Source of the DNA: Thiocystis violascens DSM 198
Lineage (GTDB): Bacteria > Pseudomonadota > Gammaproteobacteria > Chromatiales > Chromatiaceae
NCBI RefSeq assembly: GCF_000227745.2
Contig: NC_018012.1
Coordinates: forward strand, 2,340,501 to 2,404,500
DNA: 64,000 nt
Direction of reading: 5' to 3'
The notes beneath the pieces are model-generated. The model saw only the letters and a program-made list of their open reading frames with translations, made no database searches and was not told the origin of the DNA. A program made the position numbers and the translations under genes. The stretch's first letter is position 1. Each line of letters opens with the position of its first letter. Shown here piece by piece: positions 35,213 through 44,535 of this stretch.

Positions 35213-36406
35213 GAGGGTGTAGACAAAAATAATTGAGCTGCTATTTGTATACCAGTCTACAACTGAGCTGGTGTGCGCTGATGTCGAAAGCTGGTCGTCC
35301 CCCCAAGATTCACGAGGCGGAGCAAGCGGTATTGCGTCAAATTGTCACGGATCGCCCGACCTCCACGCTGTCAGAGATTGCCCGGGAACTCGCGGCACGG
35401 ACGGGAATCGAGGCTCATGAAGCAACGATTCGCAAGTCCTTGCGGGAGGCGGGCGTCACGCGCCTCCGGGGCGAGAGTGGTCTCGAGGCGCAAGCGCGCG
35501 CAACGCCGCGTCGGTATGGGTATACGGATGCGCATCGTCGCCACGACCCCGACCAAAGCTACCCAAGTTGTCTGACCGATGCGGAGTGGGACTTGGTCGC
35601 CGCTCTCTTTGAGATGCCGGGCGGGCGGGGTCAACCGCCCCGCGTGTCGCGCCGGAGCATCCTGGAGGCGTGTTGCTACGTGGTGCGCACGGGGTGCGCG
35701 TGGCGGATGCTGCCGCACGATTTCGCGCCTTGGCAGAATGTCTACAAGACGTTTCGCCGTTGGAGTGCGGCTGGGAAGTTTGAGCAGATGCATGATCGAC
35801 TGCGGGGGCAATGGCGCGAACGCGAGGGGCGTGAGATCGCGCCGACGGCGGCGGTGCTGGATGCGCAATCGACCCGCGGCTCGCCGCAGGGTGGACCGAG
35901 CGGCTTTGATGCGGGCAAGCAGGTCAAGGGGCGCAAGCGCAGCCTGGTGGTCGATACCTTGGGGTTCGTGTTGGCGGTGAGCGTGGTCGCGGCCAATCTT
36001 CAGGACCGCGATGCCGCCTCGGGCGCCGTCGCTGACGCGGCCGCCAAGTACCCCCAGATCAACACGCTGTTTGTCGATAGCGCCTACGCCGGTCAATTTG
36101 CCCAAACCACCGAGCAGACCCACGCGATCCGCGTGGAAGTCGTGCGCCATCCAGCCAACAAAAGCGTTGGCTCCTGGCACGTGGACGGGGCGCCTGACCG
36201 AGTGGTGATCGCCAACGCCGACGGCTTCGTTCCGCTGCCGAAGCGCTGGGTTGTCGAGCGCACCCATGCGTGGAATGAGCGTGCCCGTCGATTGATCATG
36301 CATCATGACCGTCTGCCAGCGGTCTCCGAAACCTGGGTTTGGCTGGCGGAGGCGCGCATCCTGCTGCGGCGGTTGACCACAACGGTTTGATTTTGTCTAC
36401 ACCCTC
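35213..36406. mobile_element. IS5-family insertion sequence, complete
   Basis: A 1194-bp element with terminal inverted repeats GAGGGTGTAGACAAAA at both ends (35213-35228 and the reverse complement ending at 36406). A 3-bp direct repeat TGA flanks it (35210-35212 and 36407-36409), as expected for the TNA-target IS1031-like group of IS5. It carries one intact transposase gene. Insertion replaced the C-terminus of the neighbouring DUF29 gene. The intact gene and matching ends suggest a recent, still mobile copy. Confidence 0.9.
35281..36390 (+). CDS. IS5-family transposase
   Basis: This 369-residue DDE transposase has an N-terminal helix-turn-helix (GRPPKIHEAEQAVLRQIV) and the DUF4096-type block (SCLTDAEWDLVAALFE, RTGCAWRMLPHDFAPWQNVY). 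The catalytic residues are visible in AAVLDAQSTRGSP (first Asp), NTLFVDSAYAGQ (second Asp) and WVVERTHAWNERARR (Glu). It appears intact. The ATG at 35281 starts the HTH region; an in-frame TTG at 35233 lies close to the terminal repeat and is less likely. Confidence 0.92.
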   Translation: MSKAGRPPKIHEAEQAVLRQIVTDRPTSTLSEIARELAARTGIEAHEATIRKSLREAGVTRLRGESGLEAQARATPRRYGYTDAHRRHDPDQSYPSCLTDAEWDLVAALFEMPGGRGQPPRVSRRSILEACCYVVRTGCAWRMLPHDFAPWQNVYKTFRRWSAAGKFEQMHDRLRGQWREREGREIAPTAAVLDAQSTRGSPQGGPSGFDAGKQVKGRKRSLVVDTLGFVLAVSVVAANLQDRDAASGAVADAAAKYPQINTLFVDSAYAGQFAQTTEQTHAIRVEVVRHPANKSVGSWHVDGAPDRVVIANADGFVPLPKRWVVERTHAWNERARRLIMHHDRLPAVSETWVWLAEARILLRRLTTTV

Positions 36407-39657: not shown

Positions 39658-40095
39658 TTAGACTGCGGACTTGGGAATCCGGATTTTCTGGCCGGGGTAG
39701 ATCAGGTTCGGATCTTTGATGACCTCTCGATTGGCCTCGAAGATCCGCGAATAGGCACCGCCATCGCCATAGAAGTTTTTCGCAATGGCCGACAGCGAAT
39801 CGCCTTTCTCGATAACATAAAACTCGACGTCGACGGTCTGGGGCGGGGCGGAGAATTGGTCGACCTTGACCTCCGCAACCCCCTGGATATTGCCGGCCAT
39901 GAGCACGGCTTTCTCCATGGCATCCGGACTGTCCGCCGTGCCGGCGAGCGTGACCACGCCCTGATCGTAGGTCACCGACAGATCCTTGACGCCTGGATTG
40001 TCGCGTTCGATCTCTTCCCTGATCTTCTCGCTTGCCTCGGCATCGTTGCCGAAGACTTTCTTGCCATTCCCCTTCAGAAAGTCGAACAGTCCCAT
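39658..40095 (-). CDS. BON-LysM protein (Kbp/YgaU-like)
   Basis: This 145-residue protein has an N-terminal MGLFDFLKGNGKKVF, a BON domain (about 25-90, VKDLSVTYDQGVVTLAGTAD) and a C-terminal LysM domain (about 95-142, FYVIEKGDSLSAIAKNFYGD, then NLIYPGQKIRIP). It has the size and order of E. coli Kbp, a cytoplasmic potassium-binding stress protein. No signal peptide is seen. The ATG at 40095 is set by the MGLFDF start shared with Kbp; an upstream in-frame extension has no family match. It is the last gene of a five-gene minus-strand operon with the TelA-like gene. Confidence 0.88.
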   Translation of the reverse strand: MGLFDFLKGNGKKVFGNDAEASEKIREEIERDNPGVKDLSVTYDQGVVTLAGTADSPDAMEKAVLMAGNIQGVAEVKVDQFSAPPQTVDVEFYVIEKGDSLSAIAKNFYGDGGAYSRIFEANREVIKDPNLIYPGQKIRIPKSAV

Positions 40096-40154
40096 AAAGA
40101 CCTCCGCTGGCAATTGAGAACGCAGAATGACGCGAACGAGAAAAAGCCGTTGAA

Positions 40155-40454
40155 CTAGCTGAATTTCGACTTGATGCGATCCAGAGAGTCTTTCACGAAG
40201 CCAGTGAGATGAGCCCAGCCCTCCTCGGCATCTTCCTTCAGCTCGTCCCATTTTTCATCGGCGGAATCGATCATTTCCTGACGTTTGCCCTCGCCCTCGT
40301 CCCATTTGAGCTTGATTTCGGCGATCTCTTTCTCGATCGATTCCCTGACATCGTCGGCGGCATCGGCCGCCTTGGCGCGCAGATTGTCCAGATCGACTTT
40401 CCACTCGTCGAGCTGGTTCTTGAGCTTCTCGACGTACTCTTCTTTGGTCATCAT
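40155..40454 (-). CDS. Small charged coiled-coil protein (stress-type)
   Basis: This protein of about 99 residues is almost entirely one long amphipathic helix rich in Glu, Lys, Asp and Trp (KEEYVEKLKNQLDEWKVDLD, then EIAEIKLKWDEGEGKRQEM). Similar small helical proteins are annotated as coiled-coil or sll1863-like stress proteins. The ATG at 40454 gives an 8-base gap to GAGGA; neighbouring in-frame ATGs at 40451 and 40463 are possible. It lies between the BON-LysM and large coiled-coil genes on the same strand. Confidence 0.7.
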   Translation of the reverse strand: MMTKEEYVEKLKNQLDEWKVDLDNLRAKAADAADDVRESIEKEIAEIKLKWDEGEGKRQEMIDSADEKWDELKEDAEEGWAHLTGFVKDSLDRIKSKFS

Positions 40455-40577
40455 CGGCAGCATCCTCTACAGACGTTAAAAAGACAGGGTCGCTGAAAAG
40501 ACAGAGCATCGAACAGAACACAATCACAAGACATCAATATCCTTAGACTGGCCAAGCCGCGTTGTCAATCTTTCGCG

Positions 40578-42017
40578 TCAGAATCCGCCACCCGTACGGA
40601 AACCGCCGCCACTGCCTCCGCCACCGCCGCCGCTCCTTCCAAAGCTGCCGACGATATCGCTCAGACCGCCCGATCCGCCGCCCCACACGGTGCCGCGGCC
40701 ATAACCGCCGGAGCCAAAGGTCGGGTCGGACTGTTGCGGTCGGTAGCGCTGCTGCTCGCGCAGGATGCGCCAGAGGTTGTCGCGGTCCAGCATGCCATTG
40801 ACGAACTGGCCAAGCAGCATGGCGATCATGTCCCCGTCGCCAAAGGTCGAACCGGCTCGGTCGTAGCGGCTGCGCTTGAAATCCGACCGCAGCGCTTCGA
40901 GTTCGGTCAGTCGCTTCTGCTGCTGGAGGATGGCATCCTTGAGCCCCTGAATACTGGCCGCCAACTGGCGGCGCTCGTCTTCGCGCTGGAGCATCCGCCC
41001 GACGATCAGATCGTCCTCGGGATAGGGCGTCGCGAGCGCCTCCCGCCGCAGTTCCATCAGATCCTCCCGCTGGAACTCGGCGGCCATGAAGTTGACCGCC
41101 TTTCTGGTGTGCTCGTCCTCGCCGGCGGCGAAGAGCGCCTTGCGCGCCATCAGAACCTGCTGGTCCGACTCGGCATGGGCGATCCGCTCGTCGATGGCGT
41201 CGAGACTCGCTTGTTCGTCGGCGACGATCCGTTCCAGGGCCGGGATGCCGTCCGCCGCCCGCGCGGCCTCGTCGAGCGCCTTGAGCGCGGCGTACTCGCT
41301 CTCGGCGCCGGCCTGGAGACCTCTGGCATGCTCGCGCAGCCGCTCCGGGATCTCGTTCAGGCGGCTGAAATTGGCGCGGGCGTCCGCGAATCCGATCCGC
41401 TTCGCGACCCAGCGATCCAGCGCCCGGAACAGGCCCCAGGATTTATCCTCGGGCGTGCCATGGTTCCGCTCCCAGAGATAGAGGAACAGCGGATCGCCCC
41501 GGAAGGCAGCGCCCTTTTGTTCACGTTCCTCCTCGCTGCGGGTTGCCTTTTCGCTGGCGTGCATGGCCAGACGCTCGGCCTCCGTGGCCTGTTCGCGCTG
41601 CCTTCGGTAGTCGGGATCCGCATCCAGGCGCGTCTGGATCCGGGCCGCGGCAGCATCCACCGCCGCATCCGCGGCATCCAGGCGGGCGGCCTGGGCGGAG
41701 CGCTCGCGCTCCAGGGTCTGCCGGAGTGCATCGGCGGACTGGAGTTTAGTCTCCAGTTCGCGCAGGGCGGACTCGCGCTGGGACAGGAGTGCCAGCGCCT
41801 GCCGCTCCGCCTGATCCAAATGGCGCAGTGTCTCCGGGTCCGTCATCAGGCCGACGCGCACTTGGGCCAGGTCTTTATAGTCCTGGGTCAGCGCCTGTTG
41901 CAGTTCGGCCAGGCGTCCGTTCACACCCTCGATCTGCGACTCAATGGTAGCGATCCGGGTACGCGCATCGTTGACCGCCTGGTCGATGCTTGACAGGGTC
42001 TGTCGTCCGGAAATCAT
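40578..42017 (-). CDS. Large coiled-coil protein with Gly-rich tail
   Basis: This 479-residue protein of unknown family has an N-terminal half of heptad-patterned coiled coil (residues about 5-160 and 225-300: SQIEGVNGRLAELQQALTQD, REAL/LEEK-type heptads). A conserved central block WERNHGTPEDKSWGLFRALDRW has few charges, and the last 60 residues are almost only Gly, Ser and Arg with scattered Phe/Tyr. No signal peptide or membrane segment is seen. The tail looks disordered and may favour condensation or filament formation. It is third gene of the TelA-like operon, 10 bases after the DUF6384 stop codon. Confidence 0.75.
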   Translation of the reverse strand: MISGRQTLSSIDQAVNDARTRIATIESQIEGVNGRLAELQQALTQDYKDLAQVRVGLMTDPETLRHLDQAERQALALLSQRESALRELETKLQSADALRQTLERERSAQAARLDAADAAVDAAAARIQTRLDADPDYRRQREQATEAERLAMHASEKATRSEEEREQKGAAFRGDPLFLYLWERNHGTPEDKSWGLFRALDRWVAKRIGFADARANFSRLNEIPERLREHARGLQAGAESEYAALKALDEAARAADGIPALERIVADEQASLDAIDERIAHAESDQQVLMARKALFAAGEDEHTRKAVNFMAAEFQREDLMELRREALATPYPEDDLIVGRMLQREDERRQLAASIQGLKDAILQQQKRLTELEALRSDFKRSRYDRAGSTFGDGDMIAMLLGQFVNGMLDRDNLWRILREQQRYRPQQSDPTFGSGGYGRGTVWGGGSGGLSDIVGSFGRSGGGGGGSGGGFRTGGGF

Positions 42018-42027
42018 GCGTCTCTCC

Positions 42028-42957
42028 TCACCACTGCGTAATCGCCCCGCCGGTCGTTTTCATCTCATAACGCGGCACCAGTTCGCCCCGCGTCTTCTGG
42101 CCGAATCGGTCTCGCTCGATGATGCCATCGTCCTGCTTGTCCGCGGCGACCGCCTTAAAGGTGCGCTCGTCGACTCGCAAACCCCAGCGCTTCACCCGCT
42201 CGGTCTTGCGGGTCTCCTCGTTCTCGATTGGCACCGTCAGCACCCTCCCAGTGGGATCGACGGCCTCGACCAGAAGATAGAAGTTGCGCGCCCCGGTATT
42301 GATGTCCGGAATCCGCCAGACCCCCGTCTTCTCGTCGGGCCGATTGACGATGCGCAGCCGATATTCCTGCTCCAGAATGTCGCGCGCATCTTCGATCTGC
42401 CGGATGGCCTCCCGGACGGCGGCCTTGTCATCACCGCGCAACGCGGCCCGACCCGCGTTGAAGGAACGCTCCAGCGTCTCCTGTGCCTGATCGGATTTGG
42501 CCAGCGCGACAGCCTCTGCGTAAACCTCTTCAAGCGTGTCTGGAAGAGCGGCATTGGGAGCCAGCACCACGAAATAATAGAGCGCGCCGGCCAGCGCGCC
42601 GGCCCCCACGAGACCGCCCAGCCATGTCCCCCAGACACCCCGGTTGACATAGATCCGGGCGAGCTTGATGACGAACGAATCCGGCGGCGGCTTATAGGTG
42701 AAGCGATCCTCCTTGAGCGCGGCAACGCCCTGCTCAATGACCGAATCCGGCACCGCGATCCCCTGCGCCGCGTAGATCCGGCGCAGACGCTCCTTCAGGT
42801 CCTCCTCGCGGCCAACCTCGTCCAGCTCCTTTTGCACGATCCGCTCGCGTCGACGCAGCGTATCGACCACATCCATGGCGAGCATCACGTCATCCAGGGG
42901 CGGCTTGCTTGCCGGTGCCGGAGCGGAACCTGATGTCAGGGTAGCCGCCGCGTTCAT
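42028..42957 (-). CDS. DUF6384-family membrane protein
   Basis: This 309-residue protein has an N-terminal cytoplasmic helical part (about 20-105, PPLDDVMLAMDVVDTLRRRE), a transmembrane segment (GTWLGGLVGAGALAGALYYF, about 113-135), and a C-terminal soluble domain with helices and strands (RNFYLLVEAVDPTGRVLTVP). The family has no known activity. It overlaps the TelA-like gene by 4 bases, so the products are probably made together and may form a complex, with this protein as the membrane anchor. Confidence 0.8.
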   Translation of the reverse strand: MNAAATLTSGSAPAPASKPPLDDVMLAMDVVDTLRRRERIVQKELDEVGREEDLKERLRRIYAAQGIAVPDSVIEQGVAALKEDRFTYKPPPDSFVIKLARIYVNRGVWGTWLGGLVGAGALAGALYYFVVLAPNAALPDTLEEVYAEAVALAKSDQAQETLERSFNAGRAALRGDDKAAVREAIRQIEDARDILEQEYRLRIVNRPDEKTGVWRIPDINTGARNFYLLVEAVDPTGRVLTVPIENEETRKTERVKRWGLRVDERTFKAVAADKQDDGIIERDRFGQKTRGELVPRYEMKTTGGAITQW

Positions 42958-44198
42958 GGCCGAACGGGCGACGCGGCGGGCATTTCCAGACCCTTACCCT
43001 GATCGGCAAGCCGGGCCAGCTTGCGCTTGCCCTCCTCCACCGCGTCGCGGATCTCGTTGGCGTTCGCGGTGCTCTGTTTGCGCATCTCCTCGATGATCTC
43101 ATGGGATCTGACCTGCCAGGAGACCACCGAATCCACCAGCTTTTTGACCGAGTCCGCGCGCACCGTAGGGCCATAGCCCGCCTGGACCGCCGCCTCCTGC
43201 ACCTTGCCACCGATGTCCGCCAGCACCTCCAGCGACTGGCTCATTCCTTCCTTCATGGCATTCACGGTCTGCGTGCCCTCGTGCAGACCGAACATGCCCG
43301 TGAAAGAGGCGGTCAGCGCGGTCAGGACCACTTCATTGGTGCTGAAGAAGCTCACCGCCTGCGCATAGACCCGCTCCTTGGCATTGGTGGTCTGAAGCAG
43401 ACGCGCCATGACCACTTCGGAGGTGTTGTAGGAAATCGTGAGGTTATCCGCGAGATCCTTGGCGATCTGATAACGCTTTTCTTCCTGTTGAAGCGCGCGG
43501 ACCTTCTCGTCTCTGGCCATCTCGAAGCGGGCGCGAACGGCGGGCTCCTGCGAGGTGTTGGCCTCGACTTCCTGCATGGCCGCCGCAACTCCGGCCTTAG
43601 CCTCGTCGAGCTTGCCCTGGGCGGTTTTGAGCACTTCCAGGGCCAAGACTTCGGACTGTTTCAGCGCCCCGCGGAAATCCTGATAGGCTTCCAGAATCTT
43701 CTGTTCCCGCTGGATCTGATCGTTGGTGGACGCGGTCACTTCCAGATAGGTACCCTTGATCTTGTCGAAGCGGTCGGCGATGTCCCCGCGCGAGACCTTC
43801 ATCCACACATTGCCGAGTCGCTCGAAGGTATCCAGCTTGCCGTCCTCGATCTGGTCCACCATCGTCTTGGCATCGTCGCGGATGCTGTTGAAGGCGTTGG
43901 TGATCTCCTCGTAGCGGCTGCCGATTTCCATGGCCTGTACCTGCTGACGGACCACGTCGTTGAACAGCGACGCCTCGTTGAGCGTGCGGGCGATGGCGGT
44001 CACGCGGCCTTCGTCGAGGACGGATATCTGGTTCAGCAGGGCGATGATCGGCTCGACTTGTTTGTCCCCATCGGTGGGCAGGAGTCCCAGATCGTGCAGG
44101 CCGTTCATGGCCTTGTCCAGATACTGCATCGGGGTCGCGGCAGAGATCGCGCTCGCGTTGGCAGTAGCGGCGGCAGCGGCGGTGTCGGTCGTCGTCAT
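42954..44198 (-). CDS. TelA-like coiled-coil protein (toxic anion resistance family)
   Basis: This 414-residue helical protein begins MTTTDTAAAAATANASAIS. Its body follows the TelA layout: long helices (FDKIKGTYLEVTASTNDQIQ, EKKRY/LADNL region), then NEVVLTALTASFTGMFGLHE and HEIIEEMRKQSTANANEIRD near the end. TelA proteins are linked to tellurite and cell-envelope stress resistance and in Bacillus lie beside TerD genes. The start at 44198 matches the low-complexity N-terminus; an in-frame extension upstream lacks support. The family match is by pattern, so it is moderate. First gene of the five-gene operon. Confidence 0.7.
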   Translation of the reverse strand: MTTTDTAAAAATANASAISAATPMQYLDKAMNGLHDLGLLPTDGDKQVEPIIALLNQISVLDEGRVTAIARTLNEASLFNDVVRQQVQAMEIGSRYEEITNAFNSIRDDAKTMVDQIEDGKLDTFERLGNVWMKVSRGDIADRFDKIKGTYLEVTASTNDQIQREQKILEAYQDFRGALKQSEVLALEVLKTAQGKLDEAKAGVAAAMQEVEANTSQEPAVRARFEMARDEKVRALQQEEKRYQIAKDLADNLTISYNTSEVVMARLLQTTNAKERVYAQAVSFFSTNEVVLTALTASFTGMFGLHEGTQTVNAMKEGMSQSLEVLADIGGKVQEAAVQAGYGPTVRADSVKKLVDSVVSWQVRSHEIIEEMRKQSTANANEIRDAVEEGKRKLARLADQGKGLEMPAASPVRP

Positions 44199-44289: not shown

Positions 44290-44535
44290 TTAGCAAACAC
44301 CCGACCCGGCATGCTGCGCCGGCGTCTGGGTTTTGATCGACAAGGCATGCAGTTCGCCGCTGGCGATCTGGGTCTTGACGGTTTCCATCACCAGGCGCTG
44401 ACGCTTGATCGGCGTCAGACCCTCGAAGACTTCGCTGACGATCAGCGCCTCGAAGTGACTGCCATCGCCGGAGACCTGGACCTCGGCATTCGGGATGCCC
44501 GCGCGGATGAGTTGGGCGACTGCTTCGGTTTCCAA
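44290..44535 (-). CDS. BolA-family protein (IbaG-like)
   Basis: This 81-residue protein has the BolA core: IPNAEVQVSGDGSHFEALIV, then SEVFEGLTPIKRQRLVMETV, including the conserved His that helps hold a [2Fe-2S] cluster with monothiol glutaredoxin. Short BolA proteins of this type resemble IbaG/YrbA, acting in iron-sulfur handling and acid or envelope stress. It is upstream of and on the same strand as the TelA-like operon, separated by 91 bases that include a TTTCCCGGAAATCGCC repeat. Confidence 0.9.
   Translation of the reverse strand: METEAVAQLIRAGIPNAEVQVSGDGSHFEALIVSEVFEGLTPIKRQRLVMETVKTQIASGELHALSIKTQTPAQHAGSGVC

What the first reader, a model, noticed from the sequence alone, without database searches (positions are those of the whole stretch)
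39658..44198. Five-gene operon: TelA-like, DUF6384, large coiled-coil, small helical and BON-LysM proteins
Seen: all five genes on the minus strand, the first two overlapping (ATGA), the next 10 bases apart. Three are helical/coiled-coil proteins, one has a membrane segment, one carries BON and LysM. Known: TelA proteins neighbour TerD genes in Bacillus. Inference: this operon, 4.5 kb from the Ter cassette, may build the membrane-bound part of the same stress system, with DUF6384 as anchor and the Gly-rich-tailed coiled-coil protein as scaffold. I know of no description of this combination.
Basis: partly seen in the sequence, partly recalled or inferred. Interest (0 to 1): 0.65.

Follow-up and report, generated by a model that had tools for sequence, protein, structure and literature searches.

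The report
Three-gene membrane module with DUF6384
Three genes of unknown function are found side by side in many bacteria, on large plasmids and in a giant virus of bacteria, and probably build a sensor and scaffold complex on the inner membrane, in some lineages next to a gene for a potassium-binding protein.

Summary
Genes 1-3 (helical protein, DUF6384, coiled coil) are an obligate module: all 53 of 210 own-order genomes with DUF6384 have gene 1 beside it; the one other gene-1 genome is cut by a contig end. The same order holds in 80 further loci, nearly all Alphaproteobacteria (gene 3 seen in 75, five cut), on eight plasmids opened, and in jumbo phage phiR1-37. Gene 1 is not TelA by profile. 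The Ter link is weak: TerD lies near only here, StiP also on two related megaplasmids. Gene 5 is a Kbp-type potassium binder, within 5 kb of the module in 16 genomes of 5 genera, in three arrangements; gene 4, a stress protein, in 4 of 53. The outer half of DUF6384 also occurs fused to a Ser/Thr kinase, so it is probably a sensor. Best reading: an inner-membrane sensor-scaffold complex tied to osmotic/potassium or envelope stress (0.4; function inferred only). Boldest open reading: gene 1, whose model resembles ClyA-type pore formers (inconclusive), inserts into the cell's own membrane.

The parts
42954..44198 (-). gene 1: 414-aa all-helical protein, no Pfam/NCBIfam family; core of the module
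   Evidence: dN/dS 0.03-0.06 against congeners
43302..43358 (-). gene 1 residues 281-299, its most hydrophobic stretch (AVSFFSTNEVVLTALTASF), in its most conserved region (241-360), next to the part the model cannot place (301-347)
42028..42957 (-). gene 2: DUF6384 protein, predicted single-pass inner-membrane protein
   Evidence: Pfam PF19911 3.7e-124; model pLDDT 83.6
42562..42642 (-). gene 2 residues 106-132, predicted transmembrane helix
42031..42558 (-). gene 2 residues 134-309, three-helix bundle plus beta domain, predicted extracytoplasmic; the same half is fused to a Ser/Thr kinase in L145
40578..42017 (-). gene 3: 479-aa coiled-coil protein with Gly-rich tail; core of the module
40581..40610 (-). 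gene 3 C-terminal motif GGGFRTGGGF-COOH; terminal Phe in 72 of 75 relatives with an uncut end, also in phage gp192
40155..40463 (-). gene 4: sll1863-family small helical stress protein; accessory, near the module in 4 of 53 genomes
   Evidence: NCBIfam NF052504 8e-20
39658..40095 (-). gene 5: BON-LysM protein of the Kbp (YgaU) family, predicted potassium binder; accessory
   Evidence: NCBIfam PRK11198 7.7e-48 over cut-off; PDB Kbp 7.8e-26; within 5 kb of DUF6384 in 16 genomes

Best explanation
Genes 1-3 encode one inner-membrane-bound complex. Gene 2 (DUF6384) crosses the membrane once; its C-terminal three-helix and beta domains lie outside the cytoplasm and sense a signal there, and its N-terminal helical domain holds the two soluble partners inside. 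Gene 3 is a coiled-coil scaffold whose flexible Gly-rich tail ends in a docking peptide (F-x-T-G-G-x-F). Gene 1 is a long-helix effector or adaptor whose conserved hydrophobic hairpin contacts the membrane or the partners. In the window's family a potassium binder (gene 5, Kbp) is coupled to the module, and sometimes a small stress protein (gene 4); this points to osmotic/potassium or envelope stress as the occasion. Shown: the obligate linkage, the predicted domain layout, the kinase-fused half of DUF6384, the recurrent Kbp neighbourhood. Inferred: complex formation, topology, sensing, the stress and the output.
For: Linkage: DUF6384 in 53 of 210 genomes of the order; gene 1 in 54 of 210, the same 53 (adjacent by the listed coordinates) plus G426, where gene 1 is cut by a contig end. 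In 80 loci from a scan for gene 1, gene 2 follows in 80 and gene 3 in 75; in the other 5 the contig ends first. Same order in 34 of 36 fetched loci, the other two being DUF6384 without gene 1, and in phiR1-37. Sensor: Pkinase (2.1e-32) plus DUF6384 134-308 (1e-64) in one 566-aa protein (the membrane segment between them is my reading). Anchor: one predicted TM helix. Potassium: full-length Kbp within 5 kb of DUF6384 in 16 genomes of 5 genera, upstream on the same strand, divergent, or downstream; p 3e-5 or 3e-9 if 3 or 5 of 15 genera count as independent events at an assumed 0.004 each. Kbp binds potassium (PMC9481166, passages); the GNIxG loop that carries part of its site, by my numbering, is kept. 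sll1863 is salt-induced (PMC8670252, passages).
Against: Kbp and sll1863 genes were found near none of the 80 other loci (blastp 1e-4, up to 10 kb each side), so the potassium link may belong to one family only. The genome-level Kbp association (39 of 53 against 27 of 157) is not corrected for kinship; in genus g259 most genomes have Kbp, though only three have the module. Of 18 same-contig placements two are far (G578 1.1 Mb, G547 23 kb), and 21 genomes with both have them on different contigs. sll1863 matches occur in 27 of 53 module genomes but near the module in only 4. Loss of Sll1862 and Sll1863 gave no salt-sensitive phenotype (unpublished result cited in PMC8670252). No general-stress (EcfG) promoter motif: 0 of 80. 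The kinase fusion is one case. No interaction data; the gene 1 model is only pLDDT 70.
Confidence: 0.4

Rival explanations
1. Membrane arm of the Ter stress system, with gene 1 as a TelA relative.
For: Ter cassette 4.5 kb away in this window; StiP beside the module on pMPPla107 and pBASL58; TerD slightly commoner in DUF6384 genomes (17 of 53 against 27 of 157) and TelA clearly so (35 of 53 against 47 of 157), kinship not corrected.
Against: No TelA match for gene 1. No TerD by blastp in 36 fetched loci or 80 others. 36 of 53 module genomes have no TerD. On the same contig the listed TerD are hundreds of kb away in G578 and G514 (its list was cut short). The two megaplasmids share their neighbourhood, so they may be one event.
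Confidence: 0.1
2. Gene 1 is an intracellular relative of ClyA-type pore-forming proteins: DUF6384 senses damage outside, releases gene 1, which inserts into the inner membrane and changes ion flow; Kbp reads the potassium result.
For: 27 of the first 36 structural alignments are ClyA-type proteins (by entry title; membership of some recalled), XaxA first (Z 14.1, rmsd 4.6, 277 aligned), the first unrelated chain at 12.2. The most hydrophobic stretch lies in the most conserved region, beside the unplaced hairpin after the long helices.
Against: Z 14 is what helical models without clear relatives can reach (note); no Foldseek match at E<=0.001, and its list mixes in SMC arms, chemoreceptors and designed bundles; no sequence match to any such chain in the PDB at E<=1. 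Model pLDDT 70. No fold similarity shows function.
Confidence: 0.13
3. Mobile phage-bacterium conflict module (superinfection exclusion in phages, defence on plasmids).
For: Complete in jumbo phage phiR1-37, gene 2 and 3 relatives in Dolichospermum phage Dfl-JY45, gene 1 on 11 plasmid records and in four further viral contigs, two of them seen to hold an integrase-like ORF.
Against: No strong match in PADLOC or PHROGs. Apart from antisense ORFs of the core, no neighbour family recurs beyond 14 of 85 loci in one set or beyond Kbp's 9 of 37 in the other; those neighbours look metabolic by eye, but were not annotated by profile. Among 50,697 phage records gene 1 is found only in the two records of phiR1-37.
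Confidence: 0.15
4. A true five-gene operon acting as one system.
For: All five genes collinear here; genes 4 and 5 both near the module also in G404, G505 and G515.
Against: Gaps of 114 and 59 bases; in G401 and G404 an opposite-strand gene separates gene 5, and G401 has no gene 4 there; in G505 and G515 genes 4 and 5 lie divergently upstream; in 80 other loci neither is near.
Confidence: 0.1

Closest known systems
Pfam PF19911 DUF6384
   Same: Gene 2 is a clear member (3.7e-124).
   Different: A family of unknown function; its obligate partners and a kinase-fused form are added here.
Kbp (YgaU), potassium binding protein of E. coli
   Same: Gene 5: same BON-LysM layout, NCBIfam PRK11198 over cut-off, PDB match 7.8e-26, GNIxG loop kept.
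   Different: Here its gene neighbours a membrane module; E. coli's neighbourhood was not examined.
sll1863-family stress protein (Synechocystis Sll1863)
   Same: Gene 4 over the NCBIfam cut-off.
   Different: Near the module in only 4 of 53 genomes.
XpaC-TelA pair (seen in Lactococcus)
   Same: Works alike at most: XpaC-like and TelA genes both rise in a membrane-protein overproduction transcriptome (PMC3139573, one table passage).
   Different: Gene 1 has no TelA profile match; XpaC was not compared with DUF6384.
ClyA-type alpha-pore-forming proteins (XaxA, YaxA, AhlB)
   Same: Best structural alignments of the gene 1 model.
   Different: No sequence match; Z within the range of unrelated helical models.
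Receptor Ser/Thr kinases such as the PASTA kinases
   Same: The L145 fusion has a kinase N-terminally and the DUF6384 outer half C-terminally (PknB-type kinase region matched, below that family's cut-off).
   Different: Gene 2 itself has no kinase; its N-terminal part is helical.

Membership tests
TelA (PF05816) | Profile match above the family cut-off | tested here: not met
   No hit at E<=1 for gene 1; family search of the genome finds only C1:4694591
TelA (PF05816) | Profile-profile similarity | tested here: not met
   hhalign 0.1%; both profiles shallow (Neff about 2)
Ter stress system | TerD genes in a conserved neighbourhood | tested here: not met
   Here yes; by blastp 0 of 36 fetched loci and 0 of 80 others
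Ter stress system | Ter biosynthetic genes (StiP, ATP-grasp) nearby | tested here: inconclusive
   StiP near in this window and on 2 related megaplasmids; no StiP hit in the other loci searched by blastp
DUF6384 (PF19911) | Profile match over cut-off, full length | tested here: met
   414 bits, residues 16-309
Kbp / PRK11198 | Equivalog match over cut-off, BON then LysM | tested here: met
   162.7 bits, cut-off 134; domains
Kbp / PRK11198 | Potassium binding | not testable with these tools
   Loop GNIxG kept; coordination is by backbone carbonyls
sll1863 family (NF052504) | Domain match over cut-off | tested here: met
   70.9 bits, cut-off 35
ClyA-type pore-forming proteins | Fold | tested here: inconclusive
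   Z 14.1 to XaxA, within helical noise; best Foldseek E 0.02
ClyA-type pore-forming proteins | Sequence similarity to solved members | tested here: not met
   No such chain at E<=1
ClyA-type pore-forming proteins | Forms membrane pores | not testable with these tools
   -
Known anti-phage systems (PADLOC) | Profile match | tested here: not met
   Only weak coiled-coil-like matches, best E 0.0011

The most novel reading that the evidence does not exclude
A pore-former-like protein kept inside the cell: gene 1 has a ClyA-like fold and, released by the DUF6384 sensor and the gene 3 scaffold, inserts into the cell's own inner membrane as a controlled valve or plug, with the potassium binder Kbp as read-out; jumbo phages carry the same machine to handle the host membrane.
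Probability: 0.12. Interest if true: 0.88.

Novelty: new variant of a known kind. Interest (0 to 1): 0.6.

Why it matters
Two of the three core proteins have no family name, the third is a domain of unknown function, yet the trio is as tightly linked as subunits of one machine and is shared by chromosomes, megaplasmids and a giant phage. The kinase fusion gives a first handle on DUF6384 (a sensor), and the Kbp neighbourhood offers possible partners for a potassium binder known from E. coli: a testable idea for what bacteria do with potassium sensing.

Tried and rejected
EcfG general-stress promoter upstream of gene 1: 0 of 80 with GGAAC-N16/17-YGTT, 1 of 80 relaxed (consensus recalled; the start of L038 was set too far upstream there). 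An unbiased dyad search found GGAAC-N16-CATT, 6 of 55 dereplicated upstream regions against 6 of 1,082 others, all six in Microvirga. A seeming gene 1-gene 2 fusion in L154 is a masked stretch read as X, not a fusion. Hairpin in the gene 3-gene 4 gap: z 0.36, nothing. Promoter and terminator scan near background. Recurrent partners beyond Kbp and sll1863: none convincing (names by eye). Structure search with the DUF6384 model: its three-helix bundle aligns with generic small bundles (Z 10.7 to a designed protein), its beta domain was barely tested, and no solved chain matches by sequence. Weak PADLOC and Pfam hits of genes 3 and 4 read as generic coiled coils. Paper searches on TelA/StiP and phiR1-37/tellurite gave noise; in PMC13030884 on phiR1-37 the terms g190, g191, g192, gp190 and gp191 do not occur. 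The TerD place list was cut short, so TerD distances use listed matches only. Three of the 11 plasmid records with gene 1 were not opened.
Full report
Observation. The five minus-strand genes exist as described: gene 1 (414 aa), gene 2 DUF6384 (309 aa), gene 3 (479 aa, Gly-rich tail), gene 4 (102 aa) and gene 5 (145 aa, BON-LysM). The ATGA overlap and the 10-base gap are right. Gene 2 matches DUF6384 at 3.7e-124, gene 4 the sll1863 stress family at 8e-20, gene 5 the Kbp/YgaU equivalog at 7.7e-48. All evolve under purifying selection against congeners, gene 1 most (dN/dS 0.03-0.06; others 0.07-0.18). The Ter cassette 4.5 kb away is real, with four TerD proteins, AIM24, ATPgrasp_Ter, StiP-PELOTA and a C-C bond lyase; an IS4/5-type transposase and two sugar-nucleotide genes lie between.

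The unit is three genes. In the own order DUF6384 occurs in 53 of 210 genomes and gene 1 in 54, adjacent by the listed coordinates in all 53; the extra one, G426, has gene 1 running off a contig end. In those 80, gene 2 follows in 80 (cut in one) and gene 3 in 75; the other five contigs end within 300 bases after gene 2 or inside it. Of 36 fetched loci (35 of the own order, L150 from genome G262 of another class), 34 have the trio; the other two hold DUF6384 without gene 1. Gene 1 is on 11 plasmid records; eight were opened, of Bradyrhizobium, Microvirga, Methylorubrum, Rhizobium and four Pseudomonas, and all show the three genes in order. The module is patchy: DUF6384 in 2 of 398 genomes of the phylum sample, the window's own included, and in 2 of 240 of G262's class, G262 included.

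Phages. Yersinia jumbo phage phiR1-37 (262 kb) has gp190, gp191, gp192 in the same order; gp190 is 45% identical to a Pseudomonas gene 1, gp191 matches DUF6384 (4.7e-26), gp192 shows no blastp match to gene 3 but has the position, the size and a tail ending SSSDSF. Dolichospermum phage Dfl-JY45 (209 kb) has DUF6384 (45% to the window over 139 residues of the outer domain) and a gene 3 relative, but no gene 1 was found. Four more viral contigs carry genes 1 and 2, and gene 3 too in the three that are not cut; in two (L118, L119) an integrase-like ORF was seen (name by eye).

Gene 1 is not TelA. No Pfam hit; the genome's one TelA match lies elsewhere; profile-profile 0.1%, with shallow profiles. 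Against this: TelA is commoner in DUF6384 genomes (35 of 53 against 47 of 157; kinship not corrected). Of eight same-contig cases only G547 has it within 11 kb.

Ter link. TerD occurs in 17 of 53 module genomes and 27 of 157 others. Blastp with two TerD proteins finds none in the 36 fetched or the 80 other loci; these loci reach up to about 10 kb on each side, less where contigs end. Two related Pseudomonas megaplasmids have StiP, a PTH2 protein and a dCTP deaminase beside the module, and the window has a StiP about 5 kb away. That is the residual support.

Kbp link. Full-length Kbp occurs in 39 of 53 module genomes against 27 of 157 (kinship not corrected). It lies within 5 kb of DUF6384 in 16 genomes of five genera; G578 and G547 have it far off on the same contig, and 21 genomes have the two on different contigs, which says nothing. 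Arrangements differ: same strand just upstream (G574, G575, G577, G579, G413, and a cut copy in G412), divergent upstream (G505, G507-G511, G514, G515) and downstream (the window's genus). In congeners G401 and G404 an opposite-strand gene separates it, so it is an accessory. sll1863-type genes lie near the module in G000, G404, G505 and G515, 4 of 53, though 27 of 53 have such a gene somewhere. Neither was found near the 80 other modules.

Domain evidence. DUF6384: helices, one TM helix, a three-helix bundle and a beta domain (pLDDT 83.6); no solved chain by sequence, the bundle aligns only with generic bundles, the beta domain was barely tested. In G541 the outer half (profile 134-308) is the C-terminal part of a protein with a Ser/Thr kinase domain, with a hydrophobic segment between that I read by eye: kinase inside, this half outside, hence sensor. 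Gene 3: Phe last in 72 of 75 relatives with an uncut end. Gene 1: all helical, pLDDT 70; ClyA-type proteins lead the structural list (27 of the first 36 rows, XaxA Z 14.1, first unrelated 12.2), but helical models without relatives reach that; Foldseek has nothing at E<=0.001 and a mixed list, sequence search nothing. Its most hydrophobic stretch lies in its most conserved region, beside the hairpin the model cannot place.

Mechanism. Shown: obligate linkage, predicted layout, kinase-fused half of DUF6384, recurrent Kbp neighbourhood. Inferred: that the three proteins form a complex at the inner membrane, that DUF6384 senses outside, that gene 3 docks by its tail, that gene 1 is the effector, and that the occasion is osmotic/potassium or envelope stress. 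Literature seen: passages of PMC9481166 (Kbp potassium site), PMC8670252 (sll1863 salt induction and no salt phenotype), PMC6789579 (sll1863 in a stress table), PMC3139573 (XpaC and TelA in one table). 'DUF6384' is in none of 5.39 million open papers; subscription journals are mostly not held, so absence from print is not proven.

Noticed in passing
window 44290-44535 (-): A BolA-family gene (1.4e-15) ends 91 bases before gene 1 and keeps this place in congeners G401 and G404.
   Followed up: partly
window 35233-36390 (+): IS4/5-type transposase between the Ter cassette and the five genes; may bear on their chance proximity.
   Followed up: no
L145 9604-11304 (-): Ser/Thr kinase with DUF6384 outer half (a zinc-ribbon-like N-terminus is my reading); a second outer half without gene 1 in L146 8895-9707 may be a fragment.
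   Followed up: partly
L188 3978-6709: Dolichospermum phage Dfl-JY45 carries DUF6384 and gene 3 relatives without gene 1 nearby.
   Followed up: partly
upstream of gene 1 in L038, L039, L044-L047: GGAAC-N16-CATT shared by these six Microvirga loci, like an ECF sigma promoter.
   Followed up: partly
L035 and L179: Two Pseudomonas megaplasmids share StiP, PTH2, dCTP deaminase and RNA ligase around the module.
   Followed up: partly
L138 12083-13237 (in its reverse complement) and L151 11434-12816 (-): An acyltransferase-like membrane protein gene (name by eye) between gene 3 or 4 and gene 5 in congeners, absent from that place in the window.
   Followed up: no
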